Source: Ferrovibrio terrae
Lineage (GTDB): Bacteria > Pseudomonadota > Alphaproteobacteria > Ferrovibrionales > Ferrovibrionaceae
DNA: 64,000 nucleotides
NCBI RefSeq assembly: GCF_007197755.1
Contig: NZ_CP041636.1
Location: 2,950,001-3,014,000, forward strand
Direction of reading: 5' to 3'
Shown: positions 27,167 to 38,697 of the stretch, one piece after another
Position numbering within the stretch: the first letter of the stretch is position 1
Layout: every line of letters starts with the position of its first letter
Made by a program: the position numbers and the translations under genes
Notes under the pieces: model-generated
The model's input: the letters and a program-made list of their open reading frames with translations, nothing else
Databases searched by the model: none
Told to the model about the DNA's origin: nothing

Positions 27167-27283
27167 AGCCGCGTGTCAGCCGTGGGCGGGCCGTCAGTCC
27201 CGTCGGCCGTGACGGATCATGCGCTTGTCACCGGACGCCTGCCGGGCAGGCTTTATCCTCCCCGGTTGAGCGAGGAGACACAC

Positions 27284-28162
27284 ATGCTGACAGAAAATCC
27301 CACCACTGTATCGTCCAAGGCTGGTTTTCCCGGCGCAGCCCTGCTGCGCGACGGCAAACGCACCCTGCGGTCGCTCTGCCCGCAATCCGTGCTGAACTGG
27401 CGCGAGGAACAGTTCTACCTGCGCTATGGCGAAGTCGAACTGCACCTGTTGGGCCTGCTGTGCGATCCTCAGCGCGACGCCATTGATGTCGGCGCCAATG
27501 ACGGCTGCTACGTCCACTTCATGCGCAAATATTCCCGCATGGTGCATGCCTTCGAGCCGATACCGTCGCTCGCCGACGCACTGCGCGAGAAATTCGAGAG
27601 CAAGGTGACCGTACATCCGGTGGCGCTGTCGCACGAAGCCGGCGAAACCGAGTTGCGCATTCCGGTGGTGGACGGCGTGGCGGTGACCGGCTGTTCCACC
27701 ATTTCGGACGGGGCCTCCGCCACCTATCCCGGCTTCACCACGATCCGCGTACCGCTGGATCGCCTTGATGCGGTCTATCAGGGCGATGTCGGCTTCATCA
27801 AGATCGACGTCGAAGGACATGAGCAGGCCGTGCTGGATGGCGCTGTCGGCACCATCCGCCGCTGCCAGCCGCGCATGCTGGTCGAGGTGGATGAACGGCT
27901 GGCGCCGGGCGGGCTGGCGCGGGCGCGCGGTTATTTCGATGAATTGGGCTATCGCGGCTATTTCATCGCCGATGGCGGGTTGCATCTGGCCAAGACCTTC
28001 TCGCCGGCGAAATACCAGCGGCCGGAAAACCTGCCGGATCTCACCGCGCCGCTGACCGAGCGCCAGCGTTTCGGGCGCTATGTCTACAACTTCATTTTTC
28101 TGCCGGAGAATGAAGCACCGGACCTGCCGCACCGGATCGCGGAAAAGCTCAAGCGCCTCTAG
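27284..28162 (+). CDS. FkbM-family methyltransferase
   Basis: A 292-residue SAM-dependent methyltransferase of the FkbM type, which usually O-methylates sugars or polyketides. The SAM motif is AIDVGANDGCYVHFMRK, followed by VHAFEPIPSLADALREKF and the signature FIKIDVEGHEQAVLDGA. GCGAGGAG precedes ATG 27284. It converges with a glycosyltransferase gene, sharing a CTAG at the stops, and the region downstream encodes an aminotransferase and a monooxygenase-like protein, so a methylated surface or flagellar glycan is a reasonable inference. Confidence 0.87.
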   Translation: MLTENPTTVSSKAGFPGAALLRDGKRTLRSLCPQSVLNWREEQFYLRYGEVELHLLGLLCDPQRDAIDVGANDGCYVHFMRKYSRMVHAFEPIPSLADALREKFESKVTVHPVALSHEAGETELRIPVVDGVAVTGCSTISDGASATYPGFTTIRVPLDRLDAVYQGDVGFIKIDVEGHEQAVLDGAVGTIRRCQPRMLVEVDERLAPGGLARARGYFDELGYRGYFIADGGLHLAKTFSPAKYQRPENLPDLTAPLTERQRFGRYVYNFIFLPENEAPDLPHRIAEKLKRL

Positions 28163-29409
28163 TTGGCGCCTGTAGTCGACAGCGGTAAGGGCGGCGGCCC
28201 GGCCAGTATGCCGGCATCTCTCCGGCTCCCGCGTCGGCGCTGTGCATCGCGCAGCACATGCAGCAGGAAACTGCCGATCTCGCTCCAGTCGAATACGCGA
28301 TCGCAGGCTGCATAGGCGGCTGCCTGCTGTGCATTCAGGGCAGGGATGTCGTCGACTGCATCGGCAACGCCCTGCGCCAGCGCGGTATGGCTGGCGTAGT
28401 CCTGGATTGAAACACCGTTTACCAGCGGCGTGCCGGGCACCGCGCCCTGCATGGCGAAGATCGGCACGCGATGGAAGACGTAGTCCAGCGTCTTGAGCTT
28501 GAAGCCACCGAGCAGATCCGGCACCAGCGCGATGCGTGCTCCGGCCAGATAAGGCCGGATATCTGACACGCCGCCGGTGAAATCGACAGCGGGATACTGC
28601 GCGGCGAGGCGGGCGAGATAACCTGCTTCCGTCTGTCCCACGATCTGCAGGTCGATCTTCTCCTGCTCGAAGATCGGCACGGCAGCGGCAAGGAAAGCTT
28701 CCAGGCTGATCCGCTTTGGCAGCCAGTCGAAGCTGCCGACGATGACGGCGCGGCGCGGCAGGGATGCGTCGATCTCGCGCTGGCTACGGCTGCCACCATA
28801 ACCCGGCCGCAGCAGCGCCACGGAGGGCGCACGCGGGTCGGAGGCGAATTTCTCCACGTCCTCTGGGGTATTCGCCGTGGCGAGATCGGCATGGCGCAGC
28901 AGGCGGCGTTCCAGCCGGTTGACCTTCACGGCATCCAGTCCGCGCAGCAGGCGGCGCGGCAGGCTGCTGTCCTCATGGGCAGCGATATGCCGGGCGACGC
29001 TCTGTTCGTGGTTATGCGATAGATAGACGAGTGCAGTTTCCGGATTGCGCTGCTGGTAGCGCAACACGTCATCAAGCGCCCAGCCGATAGCGATGCTGTC
29101 GAACACGATGGCATCCCAGCTTTCCGCAAGGCATGCGGCCAGCGTCCGGCGCAGACCCGGGCTGCGGCTGCGCGAGGATACCTGCGGCCAGGGCGACAGC
29201 AGCATGCCGACGGAAGCTCGCGGCGTCTGTTGAGCCAACCGCCACACGATCTGCGGTGTCGTCGGGCGCGTGGCCGTCTCGCGCGCCAGTGCAGCGACAG
29301 TGAGTGTCGCGCCGGCTGCTGCCAGTGCGGCAATGAGGCCGCCTGAATAGATGTATTGCCCGTTGGTGCGGGGCTCAGGGTCGGCAAGGGTGAGCCACAG
29401 GCATTTCAT
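28159..29409 (-). CDS. Glycosyltransferase (GT-B fold, GT4-like)
   Basis: A 416-residue cytoplasmic protein with GT-B organisation. The N-terminal domain starts with MKCLWLTLADPEPRTNGQYI and a GGLIAALAAAGATLTVAAL helix. The C-terminal domain has RAVIVGSFDWLPKRISLEAF, IDLQIVGQTEAGYLARLAA, VDFTGGVSDIRPYLAGARIA and LLGGFKLKTLDYVFHRVPIF, where the usual nucleotide-sugar EXE region is replaced by GGFKLKTLDY, as in some GT4 relatives. AGGAGG stands before ATG 29409. The donor and acceptor are unknown. Confidence 0.85.
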   Translation of the reverse strand: MKCLWLTLADPEPRTNGQYIYSGGLIAALAAAGATLTVAALARETATRPTTPQIVWRLAQQTPRASVGMLLSPWPQVSSRSRSPGLRRTLAACLAESWDAIVFDSIAIGWALDDVLRYQQRNPETALVYLSHNHEQSVARHIAAHEDSSLPRRLLRGLDAVKVNRLERRLLRHADLATANTPEDVEKFASDPRAPSVALLRPGYGGSRSQREIDASLPRRAVIVGSFDWLPKRISLEAFLAAAVPIFEQEKIDLQIVGQTEAGYLARLAAQYPAVDFTGGVSDIRPYLAGARIALVPDLLGGFKLKTLDYVFHRVPIFAMQGAVPGTPLVNGVSIQDYASHTALAQGVADAVDDIPALNAQQAAAYAACDRVFDWSEIGSFLLHVLRDAQRRRGSRRDAGILAGPPPLPLSTTGAN

Positions 29410-29676
29410 ATGGCCTCCTGACGATTCGGTGTGGTCGGGGGATGACCACGGCCAGAAGATTGGCCCCGAGACGTAATGGCGGCCAGTGATCAAAAAGGGT
29501 CGGCGGCAGCCCGGGCGCTATTAAATTTCCTAGGAGGACGAGCCTGCTTTGCATCGCAATACGCATAACGCCTGCGCTGACACCGGCTAGTCACTGGTTG
29601 CAATAGGGATTCCGGCGGATCGTCGGTGGGCAAGAGCAGTGAAACCGTCGAAACGCTTCTCGGGAGGATAACGCCG

Positions 29677-31116
29677 GTGCTGGCTACGGAAGAAGAGCAG
29701 GATTTCTTGTCCTACACGTGCGAGCGGTCGGACAGCGTGCTCGCCGCCATCGAGAAATGCCTCGACAATGGCGTCGGGGCCTGCGTGGTGGTTGACGAGG
29801 GCAAGCCGGTAGGAAATGTCTCGCTGGATGATATCAGGCGCGCCATCCTGGATGGCAGCGCAATCCGCGAGCCGCGGCTGGAACCGCTGGTCAGTCGCAT
29901 GGCAGATCCGCTGGCCAATGGCCAGCTGCGTAACGATGTGAATGTCGATAACAGGATTCTCAGTCCGATCGTTACCGAAAACGGCTATCTCAGCGGCATC
30001 AAACTGGATCGCGGCGAGCAGTATGTCCAGATCGCGCATCCCGACCTGACGCGGCATGAATTCCGCGCCGTGCTGGACGCTTTCATCTCTTCATGGGTGT
30101 CGAGCAAGGGTACCTATATCGGGAAATTCGAGGAAGAGTTTTCCGCCTTTGTCGGACTTCCGCATGGTGTGGCGGTGTCGAACGGCACCACCGCGCTGCA
30201 TCTGGCGCTGGTCGCGCTTGGCGTCGGCCCGGGCGACGAGGTGATCGTGCCAGACCTGACCTTTGCCGCGACCATCAACGCGGTGCTCTATTGCGGCGCC
30301 ACGCCGGTGATCGTGGATATCGATCCGCAGAGCTGGACCATGACCGCGGCGGGCTTCGCGGCTGCCTGCACGCCAAATACCAAAGCGGTGATCCCGGTGC
30401 ATCTGCATGGCCGCCCGGCCGAGATCGGTCCTATTGCCGAACTGGCGCACAGTCGCGGCATCTTCGTCATTGAAGATTGTGCCGAGGCTCATGGTGCCAC
30501 CTATGAAGGTACCAAGGTCGGCAGCTTCAGCGACATCGCCTGCTTCTCGTTCTTTGCCAACAAGATTGTCACCACCGGCGAAGGCGGCATGTGCCTGACC
30601 GCCTCCGACAGCCATGCGCGAATGCTGCGTGAGCTGCGCGACCATGGCATGATGCCGGGCAAGTCCTACTGGCACGAGCGGGTCGGTTACAACTACCGCA
30701 TGACCAACCTGCAGGCGGCGATCGGCCAGTCACAGATCTGGCGCATCGACCGTATTCTCGACCGCAATCGCAGCATCGCCGAACGCTATCGCCGTGCACT
30801 CGACGGCATTCCAGGTATTGCCTTCCCGCCGACGCTGCCCGACGCCTGTGGCAGCGTGGTCTGGCTGACCTGCCTGCAGGTGCCGGCGCATCTGCGCAGC
30901 CATCTGATCGCTGCGGCCCATATGGCGGAAATTGAAATGCGGCCGTTCTTCCATTCACTGTCGGCCATGCCGCTTTACGAGAAATACGCCGGCGATTGCC
31001 CGCATAGCCGCGCCTTGTCGGAAACCGGTATCAACCTGCCGACCTCGCGCTCAGTGGACGAGCAGGTAATCGAGCGCGTTGCCACCCTGATCCGGAAAGT
31101 GATGGAGGCTGTGTGA
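29677..31116 (+). CDS. DegT/DnrJ/EryC1/StrS aminotransferase with an N-terminal CBS domain
   Basis: About 479 residues in two parts. The first roughly 85 residues form a CBS-type module (SDSVLAAIEKCLDNGVGACV, VVDEGKPVGNVSLDDIRRAI) of the style found at the N-terminus of nucleotidyltransferases in sialic-acid-like sugar pathways. The rest is a PLP sugar aminotransferase with SNGTTALHLALVALGVGPGD, cofactor Asp in VIEDCAEAHG and Schiff-base Lys in FFANKIVTTGEGG (about 296). Such enzymes make amino sugars on nucleotide carriers. GTG 29677 is chosen because GGGAGG stands nine bases before it; GTG 29626 has only a weak site. The stop overlaps the next start by four bases. Confidence 0.88.
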   Translation: MLATEEEQDFLSYTCERSDSVLAAIEKCLDNGVGACVVVDEGKPVGNVSLDDIRRAILDGSAIREPRLEPLVSRMADPLANGQLRNDVNVDNRILSPIVTENGYLSGIKLDRGEQYVQIAHPDLTRHEFRAVLDAFISSWVSSKGTYIGKFEEEFSAFVGLPHGVAVSNGTTALHLALVALGVGPGDEVIVPDLTFAATINAVLYCGATPVIVDIDPQSWTMTAAGFAAACTPNTKAVIPVHLHGRPAEIGPIAELAHSRGIFVIEDCAEAHGATYEGTKVGSFSDIACFSFFANKIVTTGEGGMCLTASDSHARMLRELRDHGMMPGKSYWHERVGYNYRMTNLQAAIGQSQIWRIDRILDRNRSIAERYRRALDGIPGIAFPPTLPDACGSVVWLTCLQVPAHLRSHLIAAAHMAEIEMRPFFHSLSAMPLYEKYAGDCPHSRALSETGINLPTSRSVDEQVIERVATLIRKVMEAV

Positions 31117-32444
31117 CTCTGCCATCGACCATCATCCTGGGCGGCGGGCCCGGCGGTACCGGCCCGCTGGTCTGGGCCGCGCAAACAGGTCTTCTCGATG
31201 CCTGGCTCGATCAGGGCATCGTGCTGGTGGACAGTCAGCCGAAACTCGGCGGCATGCTGGGCCGCTACGCGATCAATTCCGATACCCTGGGCGCTGCCTA
31301 TCTCGAATGCCTGGAGGCCGGCGGCGCGCATGCTGTCCTGCGCGAGATGCGCGCCGATCCGGTGGTGCAGGAGATGCAGGCCTACCGCAAGGGCTTTCCG
31401 CCGCTGTCGCTGGTCGGGCGTTTCATGGCCCGCCTTGGTGCCGGGCTGCATGACGTGCTGGCGCGGCATCCGCGTTGCGCGGTACTGAGCAGCACCACGG
31501 CGCGATCGGTGACCATGCTGCCGGATGGCAGCGTGAAAGTGAAGGCGACCGGTAAGGTCGCGCGCGGGCACAGGCTGCAGGGCCGTTCGGTGGTTGTGGC
31601 GCTGGGCGGCACGCATCCCGTGCCGTTTCCAACCTACAGAGGTGCCCTGCCTGCATTGCCATCCGACACCATCCTGACGCCGGCCGGTCTGTACCGGGCC
31701 GCCGAAATACTGCGGCAGGCAAAGCAGCCGCGCGTGGTGGTTCTGGGCGGATCGCACAGTGCCTATTCGGTGGCCTGGGCGCTGACGCATCTCCTGGGCG
31801 AGGAAGCAGTGCCCGGTCTTGAGATCGTGCTGCTGTCGCGCCGCGAGCCGCCGGTTTTCTATGCCAGCGCGGCCGCAGCCGCAGCCGATGGTTACGTCTT
31901 TGTTGACGGTGATATCTGTCCGCGCACCGGCCGGGTCAACCGTCTCGGCGGCTTGCGTGGCAACGGCCGGGAAATCTGGCGACAGATGCGGCATCACCCG
32001 GGCAGCCTGCGGGTCCGCAGCCAGAATGAAATGGAATTGTCGGCCACGGAGCTGCGCGCGCTGCTGACTGAAGCCGCCCTGCTGGTGCCGGCTTTCGGCT
32101 ACCGCTCGCGGCAATTGCCGGTTCTCGATCATGCCGGTGCTCGTGTTGCGCTGCAGACCGATCCGACGCTGCCGGTGGTGGACACCGAGTGCCGGCTCTG
32201 TTGCGCCGACGGCAGTGTGCTGCCGAATCTGTTCGGCATCGGCCTGGGCACGGGCTTCCGTCCAACCGAGGCGATGGGCGGCGAGCCGAATTTCACCGGA
32301 CAGGCCAACAGCCTCTGGCTTTACCAGAATGACATCGGCGCTACGGTGTTCAGGGGTGTACAGCAGGCCATGCTGGAGCGGCGGCCAGCGCCAACGCGTT
32401 CGACAGCCGCGACGGCCCTGGGCGAGGCGCTGGCCTTCGGCTAG
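31113..32444 (+). CDS. FAD-dependent oxidoreductase, possible flavin monooxygenase
   Basis: A 443-residue flavoprotein. The N-terminal dinucleotide motif is ILGGGPGGTGPLVWAA, followed by IVLVDSQPKLGGMLGRYAI, and a second nucleotide-binding motif VVVLGGSHSAYSVAWALTHL lies near residue 210. The two-motif layout and the GTGFRPTEAMGGEPNFTGQA C-terminal region resemble class B/N-hydroxylating monooxygenases, but I cannot place it in a named subfamily. GTG 31113 overlaps the aminotransferase stop (GTGA), so both proteins are made together and probably act in one pathway, such as oxidation of an amino sugar or its precursor. Confidence 0.75.
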   Translation: MTLPSTIILGGGPGGTGPLVWAAQTGLLDAWLDQGIVLVDSQPKLGGMLGRYAINSDTLGAAYLECLEAGGAHAVLREMRADPVVQEMQAYRKGFPPLSLVGRFMARLGAGLHDVLARHPRCAVLSSTTARSVTMLPDGSVKVKATGKVARGHRLQGRSVVVALGGTHPVPFPTYRGALPALPSDTILTPAGLYRAAEILRQAKQPRVVVLGGSHSAYSVAWALTHLLGEEAVPGLEIVLLSRREPPVFYASAAAAAADGYVFVDGDICPRTGRVNRLGGLRGNGREIWRQMRHHPGSLRVRSQNEMELSATELRALLTEAALLVPAFGYRSRQLPVLDHAGARVALQTDPTLPVVDTECRLCCADGSVLPNLFGIGLGTGFRPTEAMGGEPNFTGQANSLWLYQNDIGATVFRGVQQAMLERRPAPTRSTAATALGEALAFG

Positions 32445-35990: not shown

Positions 35991-36863
35991 TCAGCCTTTC
36001 AGGTTCACCGCAGTGGTCATCATCTCGTTGGCCATCTGGATCACCTGCGAGTTCATCGAATAGGCCTGCTGCGCGACGATCAGCCTGGTCATCTGGCTGG
36101 CGGTATCCACGGTGGAACTCTCCAGCGCGCTGCCCTTGATCGTGCCGATGCCGGCGCGATTGGTACCGGCCATCGGGTTGCCGTAAACAGCATCGCCTGA
36201 CTCGGCCGTGACGCGATAGGCCGTACCGTCGGTGCGATCAAGCTCGTCGGGCTCGCGGAAGTTGGCCAGCACCACCTGGCCCTGCTGGGTCGTGGTCTTG
36301 TCGGCATAATGCGCGGTGATCACGCCGCCATCGTCGATACTGACGCCGGTAAAGCCGCTGCCGGCGGCATTGTCGCGGGTGTCGATGGTCAGCACCGAGG
36401 GACTGGTGCCGGTGGGGCTGGCTGATGCCATCAGGTAGAAGCCGGCGGAGTTCACCAGCCGGCCGCTGCTGTCGAGGTGAAAGTCGCCCTGGCGCGTGTA
36501 ATAGGTCTCGTTTTCGAAGCTGGTGGCGGTGCCGGTGGCCGGATCGATGCTGGCCGGTTTGGCCACGGCAAAGAAACCATTGCCGTCGATCGCCGCCGAG
36601 GCCGGGGTGTCCAGGTCGCTGGCGATCTGCCCCTGTTTGCGATTGTTGAAGTCGGCATAGCCGATCACGCCGGCCTGCCTGGTGCTGCCCAGCACCGGGC
36701 TGACGGCCGACTGCATGCCCTGCACCAGATCGCGGAACTGCGTCTCCACCGCCTTGTAGCCGGCGGTGCCGGCATTGGCGACATTGTCGGCGATGTTGCT
36801 GATCGCCATCGACTGCGCATTCAGCGCCTGCACCGCCATACCCATCACGCCGCTCATCGTCAT
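35991..36863 (-). CDS. Short FlgE-like flagellar hook/basal-body protein
   Basis: A 290-residue axial protein of the FlgE/FlgF/FlgG superfamily. The N-terminus has the rod-family signature SMAISNIADNVANAGTAGYK. The middle carries the DGNGFFAVAKPA and YYTRQGDFHLDSSGRLVNSAG blocks, and the C-terminus ends with SQMTRLIVAQQAYSMNSQVI, the coiled helix used for stacking. It is clearly shorter than the hook protein at 37357-38697 (446 residues) and lacks most of its middle domain, so it may be a rod or hook-junction type or a minor hook variant. AGGAG precedes ATG 36863. It is divergent from flgE. Confidence 0.88.
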   Translation of the reverse strand: MTMSGVMGMAVQALNAQSMAISNIADNVANAGTAGYKAVETQFRDLVQGMQSAVSPVLGSTRQAGVIGYADFNNRKQGQIASDLDTPASAAIDGNGFFAVAKPASIDPATGTATSFENETYYTRQGDFHLDSSGRLVNSAGFYLMASASPTGTSPSVLTIDTRDNAAGSGFTGVSIDDGGVITAHYADKTTTQQGQVVLANFREPDELDRTDGTAYRVTAESGDAVYGNPMAGTNRAGIGTIKGSALESSTVDTASQMTRLIVAQQAYSMNSQVIQMANEMMTTAVNLKG

Positions 36864-37081
36864 CGTTCTGCTCCTTTGTGTTGTCGCTGCAGGAGCAAGG
36901 TGCGTGCCGCGCGCAGGCAGTACCGCGCATTGTCGCGCAGACGCGCGTGACACGATCCGCAACATGGTAACGACGCCGTTCATGATGAACGCGCGAGGAC
37001 AGCGGACAGGGCGTGTCGTGGGAGATAAACCGTTCTCAGACAATCGAAAAACTGTTCCTGAAATAGTCTTTCAGACTTGCC

Positions 37082-37124
37082 TTAACGGGTTTTAAGTATG
37101 CGCGGTAATGTTAACTTTTGTTAC
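37082..37124. promoter_or_regulatory. Two TTAA-N6-TTA(A/C) sites in the flgE intergenic region
   Basis: TTAACGGGTTTTAA at 37082-37095 and TTAACTTTTGTTAC at 37111-37124. They lie about 260 and 235 bp before flgE and about 220-260 bp before the divergent FlgE-like gene. They resemble CtrA-type paired half sites. Confidence 0.4.
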
Positions 37125-37232
37125 CTGTAACAGGCCGTCGCAAAGTGACAGTTTATCGTTAAAATCATTGAAACTACGCAGTTTTTACCTAGTCCGGCAG
37201 AATATGCCCGGTGGCCCGGCAAGGCGTGATCG

Positions 37233-37246
37233 TTAACCACCGTTAA
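37233..37246. promoter_or_regulatory. TTAA-N6-TTAA site nearest to flgE
   Basis: TTAACCACCGTTAA, about 110 bp before the flgE start codon, with both half sites perfect. It is the closest of the three sites to flgE and the likeliest to act on its promoter; the regulator is not known. Confidence 0.42.
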
Positions 37247-37356
37247 TCTTTTGGCAAGAAATGGCGCTTTGCCAAGGATATAGGATAAGAGTCACAAAAC
37301 GGCATGGTCCTTGCTCCAGACGGTCCCGACATCGCCATCCAACCAGGGAGCAACCC

Positions 37357-38697
37357 ATGTCGATTACCGGTGCAATGCAGACCGCGATTTCCGGAATGAA
37401 CGGCCAGTCCGCGGCCATCGGCTTCATCTCCGACAACGTCGCGAACGCCAGTACGGTCGGTTACAAGAAAGTGGAATCGCGATTCCAGACGCTGGTCACG
37501 CAATCGAGCGCGCAGGCCAATACGCATTCCTCGGGCGGCGTGCTGAACCAGCCCTTCTTCGCCAACAATGCGCCGGGCCCGATCTCGCGGGTGTCGTCCA
37601 CCACCTCGATCGCCATCTCCGGCAACGGCTTCATCCCGGTGTCGAAGCAGGTCGGAACCGATCCCTCCACCGGTCTGCCGACTTTTGAAGCCACCAACTA
37701 TTACACCCGCGTCGGCGACTTCAATCAGAACTCGGAAGGCTTCCTGATCAATTCGTCAGGCTACTACCTGCAGGGCTGGGCGGTCGATCCGGTCACCGGC
37801 GAGGTCGACACCTCCAGCACATCTGAAGTGCGCGTCTCCAACCTGCTCGATGCGCCTGTCGCGACCAACCTGGTCGAATACGCAGCCAACCTGCCCAACA
37901 ACGTCAGGGACGCCAGCGGCAATCTGCCGGCAACCCTGCCGGCCAGCTCGATCCAGATCTTTGATGCGCTGGGCAATGCCCGCTCGGTCAATCTGACCTG
38001 GACGCGGATTGGCGAAAGCGATTGGACGCTGCAGGTCAATTCACCGGACAGCACGCCCGCCACTTTCGGCCCCGCCACGGTCAGTTTCGGCGGCACTCTG
38101 GTTGACGGCACGACAGTCCCGGCCGGCACACTCTCCTCGATGACGACTGGCGGCGGCTTGACCGCCACCGCGGCCAGCGCCACGGGCGCCAATGCCGCCT
38201 TCAGCTTCGATCTCGATTTCGGCAGCGGTCCACAGGCGATCAGCCTCGACCTCGGCTCTTACGGCAACAATACCGGCACCACGCAATATGCCGGCGACAA
38301 GCTGACACTGAACAGCTTCGAGCAGAATGGTGTACCCCAGGGAAATTTCAAAAGCCTGTCGATCGATGAACAGGGCTATGTGTCGGTCACCTTCGACAAC
38401 GGCAACGTGAAGACCTTTTACCAGATACCCATCGCGCGGTTTAACGACCCAACAGAGCTTGATCGCGTGAACGGCAACGCCTTCGTCGCCACACCCAGAT
38501 CGGGGTCGCCGATCCTGGCCGAAGCGGGATCCAGCGGTGTCGGCGATTTCGTGTCGTCGGCGGTGGAGGGCTCGAATGTCGATATCGCCGAGGAATTCTC
38601 CAAGCTGATCGTCGCGCAGCGGGCTTACTCAGCCAATGCACGCATCATCACGACGACAGACGAACTGTTGCAGGAAACCATCAACATCCGGCGCTAA
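37357..38697 (+). CDS. flgE: Flagellar hook protein FlgE
   Basis: A 446-residue hook subunit, exported and polymerised under the FlgD cap. The start MSITGAMQTAISGMNGQSAA and DNVASNTVGYK-like motif (SDNVANASTVGYKKVESRF) are typical. Conserved hook blocks are TSIAISGNGFIPVSKQ, YYTRVGDFNQNSEGFLINSS, LQGWAVDP, IQIFDALGNARSVNLTWTR and the C-terminal EFSKLIVAQRAYSANARIIT. GGGAG precedes ATG 37357. It is followed 25 bp later by flgK and then flgL, so hook and junction proteins are co-expressed. Confidence 0.94.
   Translation: MSITGAMQTAISGMNGQSAAIGFISDNVANASTVGYKKVESRFQTLVTQSSAQANTHSSGGVLNQPFFANNAPGPISRVSSTTSIAISGNGFIPVSKQVGTDPSTGLPTFEATNYYTRVGDFNQNSEGFLINSSGYYLQGWAVDPVTGEVDTSSTSEVRVSNLLDAPVATNLVEYAANLPNNVRDASGNLPATLPASSIQIFDALGNARSVNLTWTRIGESDWTLQVNSPDSTPATFGPATVSFGGTLVDGTTVPAGTLSSMTTGGGLTATAASATGANAAFSFDLDFGSGPQAISLDLGSYGNNTGTTQYAGDKLTLNSFEQNGVPQGNFKSLSIDEQGYVSVTFDNGNVKTFYQIPIARFNDPTELDRVNGNAFVATPRSGSPILAEAGSSGVGDFVSSAVEGSNVDIAEEFSKLIVAQRAYSANARIITTTDELLQETINIRR

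What the first reader, a model, noticed from the sequence alone, without database searches (positions are those of the whole stretch)
29677..32444. CBS domain fused to a DegT-type sugar aminotransferase, coupled to an FAD monooxygenase-like protein
The first about 85 residues of the aminotransferase read as a CBS-type module of the kind normally found on nucleotidyltransferases in sialic-acid-like sugar pathways; DegT aminotransferases are usually single-domain. The next gene overlaps by four bases and encodes a two-nucleotide-site flavoprotein that I cannot place in a named family. FkbM and glycosyltransferase genes lie upstream and flagellar hook genes lie 2 kb downstream. This may be a nucleotide-regulated pathway for an unusual oxidised amino sugar, possibly for flagellin or surface glycan.
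Basis: partly seen in the sequence, partly recalled or inferred. Interest (0 to 1): 0.62.

Follow-up and report, generated by a model that had tools for sequence, protein, structure and literature searches.

The report
Sugar aminotransferase paired with unnamed flavoprotein
A bacterial gene pair couples an enzyme that puts an amino group on a sugar to a flavoprotein of an unnamed family that probably adds oxygen to that amino group, which would give some bacteria an unusual surface sugar.

Summary
The ORF at 29626-31116 (likely start 29677) is a DegT-type sugar aminotransferase with one clear N-terminal CBS motif. It overlaps by 4 bases a two-nucleotide-site flavoprotein (31113-32444).

The CBS module is the lesser part: CBS-DegT fusions also occur without the flavoprotein, and 12 other pairs lack CBS. 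The notable part is the flavoprotein. Neither Pfam nor NCBIfam names its family, and in 23 of 29 neighbourhoods read it is fused to, or beside, a DegT aminotransferase (11 of the 23 are close relatives of the window's pair). Fusions occur in both domain orders. The partner aminotransferases are not one clade (p 5e-8). Neighbours include glycosyltransferases, FkbM methyltransferases, Wzc and a flippase-like gene.

By Foldseek the predicted fold is nearest N-hydroxylating monooxygenases (DfoA, SidA), but reductases tie in a second aligner. Best reading: the aminotransferase makes a nucleotide-linked 4-amino sugar (closest solved relatives: perosamine synthetases) and the flavoprotein N-oxygenates that amine, where an N-acetyltransferase often sits. 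This is inferred, not shown. A flagellin link is unlikely: flagellar families are shared only by the window and its Ferrovibrio relative.

The parts
27173..28162 (+). FkbM-type methyltransferase, first gene of the cassette
   Evidence: PF05050 1.2e-19; tblastn match in 7 of 10 other CBS-aminotransferase loci (in L019 only 88 residues; L025 begins too late to tell)
28159..29493 (-). group-1 glycosyltransferase, divergent from the aminotransferase
   Evidence: PF13692 9.2e-12; tblastn match in 9 of 10 other CBS-aminotransferase loci (cut by a contig end in L025; none in L020)
29677..31116 (+). CBS-DegT sugar aminotransferase (ORF open from 29626)
   Evidence: PF00571 31.7 bits and PF01041 377.5 bits; best PDB relatives perosamine synthetases 3bn1/3dr7, E about 2e-93; catalytic Lys present
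29716..29850 (+). recognisable CBS motif (residues 31-75 of the 29626 ORF)
   Evidence: PF00571 E 1.9e-7; [ST]xxD motif (meaning recalled) as SLDD, kept in 9 of 11 loci
31113..32444 (+). two-dinucleotide-site flavoprotein, N-hydroxylase-like, unnamed family
   Evidence: no NCBIfam model at E<=0.1; fold nearest N-hydroxylating monooxygenases by Foldseek; fused to or beside a DegT aminotransferase in 23 of 29 loci read

Best explanation
A four-gene surface-glycan cassette. Step 1: the CBS-DegT enzyme uses PLP and an amino donor to aminate C4 of a nucleotide-linked 4-keto-6-deoxy sugar, probably GDP-4-keto-6-deoxymannose, giving a GDP-perosamine-like sugar (family assignment shown, substrate inferred). 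Step 2: the translationally coupled flavoprotein, reduced by NAD(P)H, uses O2 to N-oxygenate that amine while it is still on the nucleotide, giving an N-hydroxyamino sugar (inferred). It takes the place of the N-acyltransferase that normally caps such amines. Step 3: the divergent glycosyltransferase and the FkbM methyltransferase place and methylate the sugar in a surface glycan (inferred from neighbours). The CBS module is an optional add-on of this lineage, at most tuning the aminotransferase.
For: Coupling: in 23 of 29 flavoprotein loci read, the gene is fused to (6) or directly beside on the same strand (17) a DegT aminotransferase (11 of the 17 are the window's own cassette type). Fusions occur in both orders (flavoprotein first in L034, L060; aminotransferase first in L061, L080-L082). 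In sampled surveys 12 of 16 distinct hit genomes are so paired, some of one genus. The 23 partner aminotransferases are not one clade (AU p 4.8e-8, quick tree, group tested after the tree was seen), so pairing arose twice or the partner was exchanged. All 52 aminotransferase rows keep the catalytic Lys. Fold: the first 25 Foldseek rows are N-hydroxylases (DfoA, SidA, putrescine N-hydroxylase, DesB; E 8e-12 to 1.5e-10). No CxxxxC in 29 sequences and no shared CxxC, so no disulphide-reductase signature. Distant relatives in Priestia and Erwinia sit beside or one gene from a protein with nucleotidyltransferase-like and CobD-like parts, in Priestia with an AAC(3)-type acetyltransferase and a reductoisomerase gene; this fits N-hydroxylation of a nucleotide-tethered amine, the chemistry known for FrbG (PMC7347517, passages). 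Peribacillus: an aminotransferase 40% identical to the Granulicella fused one is followed, with a 4-base overlap, by an acetyltransferase beside rfbA/B/D. The window genome has a strong GDP-mannose-4,6-dehydratase match (521.8 bits, the best of 22 matches to that broad family).
Against: The second aligner ties hydroxylases (PvdA Z 18.7) with other monooxygenases (18.6) and a thioredoxin reductase (18.4), so the fold does not settle the chemistry. By sequence profile the best PDB hits are a ferredoxin-NADP reductase (4e-6) and thioredoxin reductases; N-hydroxylases follow at 1e-4 to 0.01. No Pfam lysine/ornithine monooxygenase match in the window protein; L034 reaches only E 0.013, below cut-off. 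6 of 29 loci have no aminotransferase beside the flavoprotein (L038, L039, L062, L063, L083, L084); a Rahnella and a second Erwinia plasmid hit were not read. L025 does have an acyltransferase (PF01757) next to the pair. No PEP mutase on the Priestia or Erwinia plasmid (chromosomes not searched), so they cannot be called FR-900098 clusters, and the Priestia relative finds no flavoprotein in the PDB by sequence. The relation to FrbG itself could not be tested. GDP as the nucleotide is an inference.
Confidence: 0.5

Rival explanations
1. The flavoprotein acts on sugar carbon, not nitrogen: an FAD/NAD(P) oxidoreductase that makes (or reduces) the keto group which the aminotransferase uses, as the NAD-dependent sugar oxidases of the GnnA or WlbA type do (recalled) with their aminotransferases.
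For: Oxidise-then-transaminate pairs are a common logic (recalled); the fold is a generic two-dinucleotide flavoprotein, and the best sequence-profile hits in the PDB are reductases.
Against: Known partners in that role are Gfo/Idh-type (recalled), not this fold. The CBS-aminotransferase resembles C4 enzymes fed by 4,6-dehydratases, which need no such oxidase. The Priestia/Erwinia relatives sit near a CobD-like PLP enzyme and not a sugar aminotransferase.
Confidence: 0.2
2. The flavoprotein oxidises the amine beyond N-hydroxyl (to oxime, nitroso or nitro) or removes it again, so the sugar leaves as a nitro/oxime sugar or an altered keto sugar.
For: Same neighbourhood evidence as the best explanation; repeated oxidation is known for the nitrososynthases of antibiotic sugars (recalled).
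Against: Nothing in sequence tells one oxidation from several; the nitrososynthases have another fold (recalled).
Confidence: 0.15
3. One reading: a CBS-regulated, energy-sensing amino-sugar pathway for flagellin.
For: CBS above cut-off in the window protein; [ST]xxD motif kept in 9 of 11 loci; flagellar genes begin 1.8 kb away and also follow the pair in L017.
Against: Only the window and L017 share the flagellar gene families; scanned neighbours elsewhere are AcrB, GMC oxidoreductase, TPP enzyme, CoA-transferase and the like. CBS is not needed for the pair (12 pairs without it), and L019 and L021 have E in place of the motif's D.
Confidence: 0.08
4. The pairing is hitch-hiking of two independent glycan genes with no shared substrate.
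For: Six of 29 loci lack the aminotransferase.
Against: Fusion in two opposite orders, overlapping genes, partner aminotransferases that are not one clade.
Confidence: 0.05

Closest known systems
GDP-perosamine synthase (PDB 3dr7, 3bn1, named perosamine synthetase)
   Same: DegT fold, catalytic Lys, E about 2e-93 over the whole aminotransferase part, including the stretch around the NYRMTN motif
   Different: the solved chains start at the aminotransferase part, no CBS module matched; substrate of the window enzyme untested
LegC family aminotransferases (TIGR04181)
   Same: best NCBIfam match, 318 bits
   Different: below the family cut-off of 420 bits
N-hydroxylating flavin monooxygenases SidA, PvdA, DfoA, DesB, KtzI
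   Same: two-nucleotide-domain fold, top Foldseek hits; GxGxxG, GGxxSA and GY motifs in like order (motif meaning recalled)
   Different: 11-14% identity in the structural alignments, no Pfam PF13434 match, own invariants D267-x-C269 and R277..G280.R282, neighbours are sugar rather than siderophore genes
FrbG, N-hydroxylase of a CMP-linked aminopropylphosphonate
   Same: proposed chemistry: FAD-dependent N-hydroxylation of a nucleotide-tethered amine (PMC7347517, passages)
   Different: different amine and nucleotide; sequence and structure not compared (no entry of that name among the rows shown)
4-amino-sugar N-acetyltransferases (VioB, PerB type; recalled)
   Same: occupy the gene position after the aminotransferase, as seen in Peribacillus pB
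   Different: acyltransferase, not flavoprotein

Membership tests
DegT/DnrJ/EryC1/StrS aminotransferases | PF01041 above cut-off with catalytic Lys | tested here: met
   377.5 bits, cut-off 19.8; Lys present
GDP-perosamine synthase | activity on GDP-4-keto-6-deoxymannose | not testable with these tools
   only similarity and a dehydratase gene in the genome
LegC family (TIGR04181) | score above curated cut-off | tested here: not met
   318.2 against 420 bits
CBS domain proteins | PF00571 above cut-off | tested here: met
   31.7 against 24 bits in the window protein; relative L037 only 20.8
CBS domain proteins | a full tandem pair (Bateman module) | tested here: not met
   one stretch in the window protein; two in L065
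Lysine/ornithine N-monooxygenases (PF13434) | Pfam match above cut-off | tested here: not met
   not among the matches listed up to E 1
N-hydroxylating monooxygenase fold class | whole-chain structural match standing above other flavoproteins | tested here: inconclusive
   best by Foldseek, tied with thioredoxin reductases and FMOs by the second aligner; model pLDDT 79
Pyridine nucleotide-disulphide reductases | redox-active CxxC or CxxxxC | tested here: not met
   no CxxxxC in any of 29 sequences; CxxC in 2 (window, L084), not at one shared place
FrbG | sequence or structural kinship to FrbG | not tested
   no FrbG sequence at hand; none by name among the rows shown

The most novel reading that the evidence does not exclude
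An unrecognised flavoprotein family N-oxygenates amino sugars on their nucleotide, in place of the usual N-acylation, so that several lineages of bacteria (Alphaproteobacteria, a second class of the same phylum, an acidobacterium) build hydroxylamine-bearing sugars into surface polysaccharides. The same enzyme stock may serve nucleotide-tethered antimetabolite pathways in Priestia and Erwinia.
Probability: 0.4. Interest if true: 0.8.

Novelty: new variant of a known kind. Interest (0 to 1): 0.6.

Why it matters
Bacterial 4-amino sugars are as a rule capped by acylation (recalled). A flavoprotein fused to the aminotransferase in both orders points to a second way of finishing the amine. N-hydroxy sugars would be reactive, metal-binding groups on a cell surface, would show up in glycan mass spectra as an odd +16, and would give enzymology a new type of N-hydroxylase acting on nucleotide sugars. 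The fused, single-gene form makes the test simple.

Tried and rejected
The CBS module as the key feature: set aside, because CBS-type DegT proteins occur without the flavoprotein and the 12 pairs outside the cassette clade lack the module. Of these 12 aminotransferases, three (L034, L035, L088) were also scanned against Pfam, without a CBS match; for the others it rests on the profile match starting at the aminotransferase part.

Flagellin glycosylation: set aside.

An FR-900098-type phosphonate cluster for the Priestia and Erwinia relatives: not upheld, no PEP mutase on either plasmid (PF13714, 0 of 2 records; chromosomes not searched).

L016 looked like another CBS-DegT fusion from a match starting at residue 48; its translated N-terminus reads, by eye, as an over-long frame.

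Structure of the CBS-aminotransferase: the model is poor (pLDDT 53) and was not searched. No FrbG entry appears by name among the 50 rows shown by each structure search. PDB profile searches gave mostly reductases and dihydrolipoyl dehydrogenases at weak E-values.

Literature: no paper in the held library joined CBS domain, DegT, aminotransferase and fusion (0 papers); 'CBS domain' with 'DegT' gave two papers that are unrelated by title. Searches for amino-sugar N-hydroxylation of this kind gave the review PMC7347517 (passages read) and otherwise papers unrelated by title. Searches ('DiatB'; FR-900098 with megaterium, 0 papers) gave nothing; (Ferrovibrio) only the listing was seen. Subscription papers are not held, so absence in print is not shown.

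Rows dropped: L026 (fragment) from A1, A2 and the trees; genes fetched twice were used once (L008 was taken as the L017 gene, by equal identities; Tistrella hit H6 as L038, by equal replicon length); plasmid hits H4 and H7 (Rahnella, second Erwinia) were not read. From the aminotransferase tree also L004, the second L024 gene and L054 were left out; L038 and L039 from the invariant-residue count (27 of 29 rows). The profile surveys scored at most 4 or 5 candidates a genome, so their counts are lower bounds.
Full report
What is there. The window lies in a single-contig genome of 4.26 Mb (G000:C1:2950001-3014000). The nearest named relative of the cassette is Ferrovibrio sp. EaCA-1 (L017); that the window is Ferrovibrio is an inference. 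The reported pair is real. The first gene is a DegT aminotransferase (PF01041, 377.5 bits) with a CBS motif (PF00571, 31.7 bits, cut-off 24) at residues 31-75 of the long ORF. The start is probably GTG 29677, nine bases after GGGAGG. The second gene overlaps it by 4 bases and has only a marginal match to the generic Pyr_redox_2 and no NCBIfam match at E<=0.1. An FkbM methyltransferase and a group-1 glycosyltransferase precede the pair; FlgD, FlgE/F/G-like, FlgK and flagellin-C genes follow.

Conservation of the cassette. A scan of genome contigs with the flavoprotein alone gave 10 loci. Nine carry the CBS-type aminotransferase directly upstream; the tenth, L026, holds only a flavoprotein fragment. 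They are Ferrovibrio, Enhydrobacter, Reyranella and unnamed (Alpha)proteobacteria. With L037 (genome G083) this makes 11 loci including the window. The glycosyltransferase is found in 9 of the 10 others (cut by a contig end in L025, none in L020) and the FkbM gene in 7 of 10 (only an 88-residue match in L019; none in L018 and L020; L025 begins too late to tell). In the window's genus 2 of 10 genomes have the flavoprotein, and the same two, G000 and G002, have the aminotransferase with its N-terminal module. Flagellar families are shared only by the window and L017 within the flanks held.

Wider family. Sampled surveys, which are lower bounds, found the flavoprotein in 7 of 385 genomes of the class (E<=1e-10), 12 of 398 of the phylum (E<=1e-8) and 1 of 369 of the class of G445, the one being G445 itself (E<=1e-10). 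Seven of 72,556 plasmid records match: two are DegT fusions by annotation (Granulicella, Sphingomonas) and five are not. I read 29 neighbourhoods: 6 fuse the flavoprotein to a DegT domain, 17 have the DegT gene beside it on the same strand (11 of them the CBS cassette), and 6 have none. The fusions come in both orders: flavoprotein first in L034 and Granulicella tundricola (L060), aminotransferase first in Sphingomonas parapaucimobilis (L061) and L080-L082. Adjacent genes also come in both orders (L085-L088 have the flavoprotein first; the CBS cassette, L035 and L036 the aminotransferase). Of 16 distinct genomes with a hit are paired; G178, G275, G519 and G688 are not. These are not 16 independent cases: G445, G449 and G522 are one genus, as are G595, G613 and G653, and G178 and G275. 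The unpaired G519 protein lies by an FkbM gene and an epimerase/dehydratase-family gene, and the G688 protein by a glycosyltransferase. L088 is an exopolysaccharide-type cluster with Wzc, a glycosyltransferase and a flippase-like gene; L080 and L082 have a family-2 glycosyltransferase next to the fusion, while the gene after the L081 fusion has no Pfam match.

Trees. In a tree of 52 aminotransferases the 11 CBS-paired ones form one group (99, quick support) with L064, a CBS-type aminotransferase without a flavoprotein beside it, as sister; the other 12 paired ones lie elsewhere. Holding all 23 paired ones together is rejected (lnL 49.5 lower, p-AU 4.8e-8). The tree was the quick kind, long branches meet in it, and I chose the group after seeing the tree, so I use only the conclusion that the partners are not one clade. 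In the flavoprotein tree the 11 CBS loci are one clade (100/100). So one flavoprotein family has been joined to different aminotransferases, by a second pairing or by exchange of the partner, which speaks for a shared substrate.

The CBS module. A survey with the CBS-aminotransferase profile gave matches at E<=1e-75 in 34 of 289 genomes; in 5 of the 289 (G000, G083, G199, G213, G094) the match reaches the N-terminal module. L065 (G213) has two CBS stretches (47.2 bits), L066 (G094) a sub-threshold one (18 bits), and L064 (G199) none at E 0.01 although its N-terminus aligns with the profile. In the cassette clade 8 of 10 rows match CBS at E<=0.01. The [ST]xxD motif, which I recall as the ribose contact, is kept in 9 of 11; L019 and L021 have E instead of D. 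I read this as a CBS module on the way to another use; nucleotide binding is possible in the window protein but untested.

What the aminotransferase does. The best solved relatives are the perosamine synthetases 3bn1 and 3dr7 (about 2e-93). The catalytic Lys is present in 52 of 52 rows, so it is an aminotransferase rather than a ColD-type dehydratase (that rule is recalled). The genome has a strong GDP-mannose 4,6-dehydratase match at C1:2217633-2218625 (521.8 bits, best of 22 matches to that broad family). NCBIfam's best is LegC, below its cut-off. The two fused proteins scanned (Granulicella, Sphingomonas) score best with DesI and PseC models, also below cut-off, so the nucleotide may differ between lineages.

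What the flavoprotein does. The model (pLDDT 79) has as its first 25 Foldseek rows the N-hydroxylases DfoA, SidA, putrescine N-hydroxylase and DesB, followed by dihydrolipoamide dehydrogenases, reductases, further N-hydroxylases and PvdA. The second aligner puts PvdA first (Z 18.7) but ties it with FMOs (18.6) and a thioredoxin reductase (18.4). A profile of 14 diverse members hits a ferredoxin-NADP reductase best (4e-6) and finds EtcB, DfoA, SidA, DesB and KtzI at E 1e-4 to 0.01 among many thioredoxin reductases. No redox cysteine pair is conserved. Invariant in 27 sequences are G10, G12 and P13 of the first site, S216-A217 of the second, R243, D267-x-C269, R277, G280, R282, G329-Y330, E391 and W402, among others. 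I read this as an NAD(P)H-using flavin monooxygenase of class B (from recalled knowledge). Combined with the repeated coupling to an enzyme that makes an amine, N-oxygenation of that amine is the most likely reaction.

Two side observations support this. In Peribacillus pB an aminotransferase 40% identical to the Granulicella fused one is followed, with a 4-base overlap, by an acetyltransferase beside rfbA, rfbB and rfbD: the acylating enzyme sits where the flavoprotein sits elsewhere. And distant relatives in Priestia megaterium and Erwinia rhapontici lie near a protein with nucleotidyltransferase-like and CobD-like parts; in Priestia an AAC(3)-type acetyltransferase lies between the two and a 1-deoxyxylulose-5-phosphate reductoisomerase gene follows. 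N-hydroxylation of a nucleotide-tethered amine is known for FrbG (PMC7347517, passages only). The reductoisomerase suggests a fosmidomycin-like product; with no PEP mutase on the plasmid the phosphate analogue fosfoxacin or fosfocytocin is a thought (PMC9782300, passages and a reference title), not a result. Against an exclusion of acyltransferase and flavoprotein, L025 has an acyltransferase gene after the pair.

Verdict. A conserved glycan cassette whose surprising part is an unnamed flavoprotein family tied to sugar aminotransferases. Function is inferred; one enzyme assay would settle it.

Noticed in passing
L063 (NC_014023.1, 6518-14622 of the locus): Priestia megaterium pBM700 carries a flavoprotein relative, two ATP-grasp genes, an AAC(3)-type acetyltransferase, a nucleotidyltransferase-CobD-like protein and a 1-deoxyxylulose-5-phosphate reductoisomerase gene, without PEP mutase on the plasmid: a candidate fosfoxacin/fosfocytocin-like cluster with self-resistance (idea only).
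   Followed up: partly
L062 (NZ_AP024330.1, 8890-19092 of the locus): Erwinia rhapontici pERA53 has the flavoprotein relative beside a nucleotidyltransferase-CobD-like protein, CDP-alcohol phosphatidyltransferase, HAD, SDR, ATP-grasp and MFS genes: by its looks a small-molecule cluster with nucleotide-tethered intermediates.
   Followed up: partly
L105 (NZ_CP133765.1): Peribacillus pB: aminotransferase like the fused ones, overlapping by 4 bases with an acetyltransferase, beside rfbA/B/D and, upstream on the other strand, FkbM and glycosyltransferase genes.
   Followed up: partly
L064 5576-8970: CBS-type DegT aminotransferase without flavoprotein, right after an NDP-sugar epimerase-family gene and a GHMP kinase that looks like a heptose kinase (reading from memory), so perhaps an amino-heptose pathway.
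   Followed up: partly
L065 6395-7954: A DegT aminotransferase with two CBS stretches, near an asparagine-synthase-like gene (read from sequence).
   Followed up: partly
L026 2130-2826: Fragment of a second flavoprotein copy in the Reyranella GW715 bin, without the aminotransferase in the 10.8 kb held.
   Followed up: no
window 35994-38694: Two FlgE/F/G-like genes lie back to back on opposite strands, between FlgD plus a response regulator and FlgK/flagellin-C genes.
   Followed up: no
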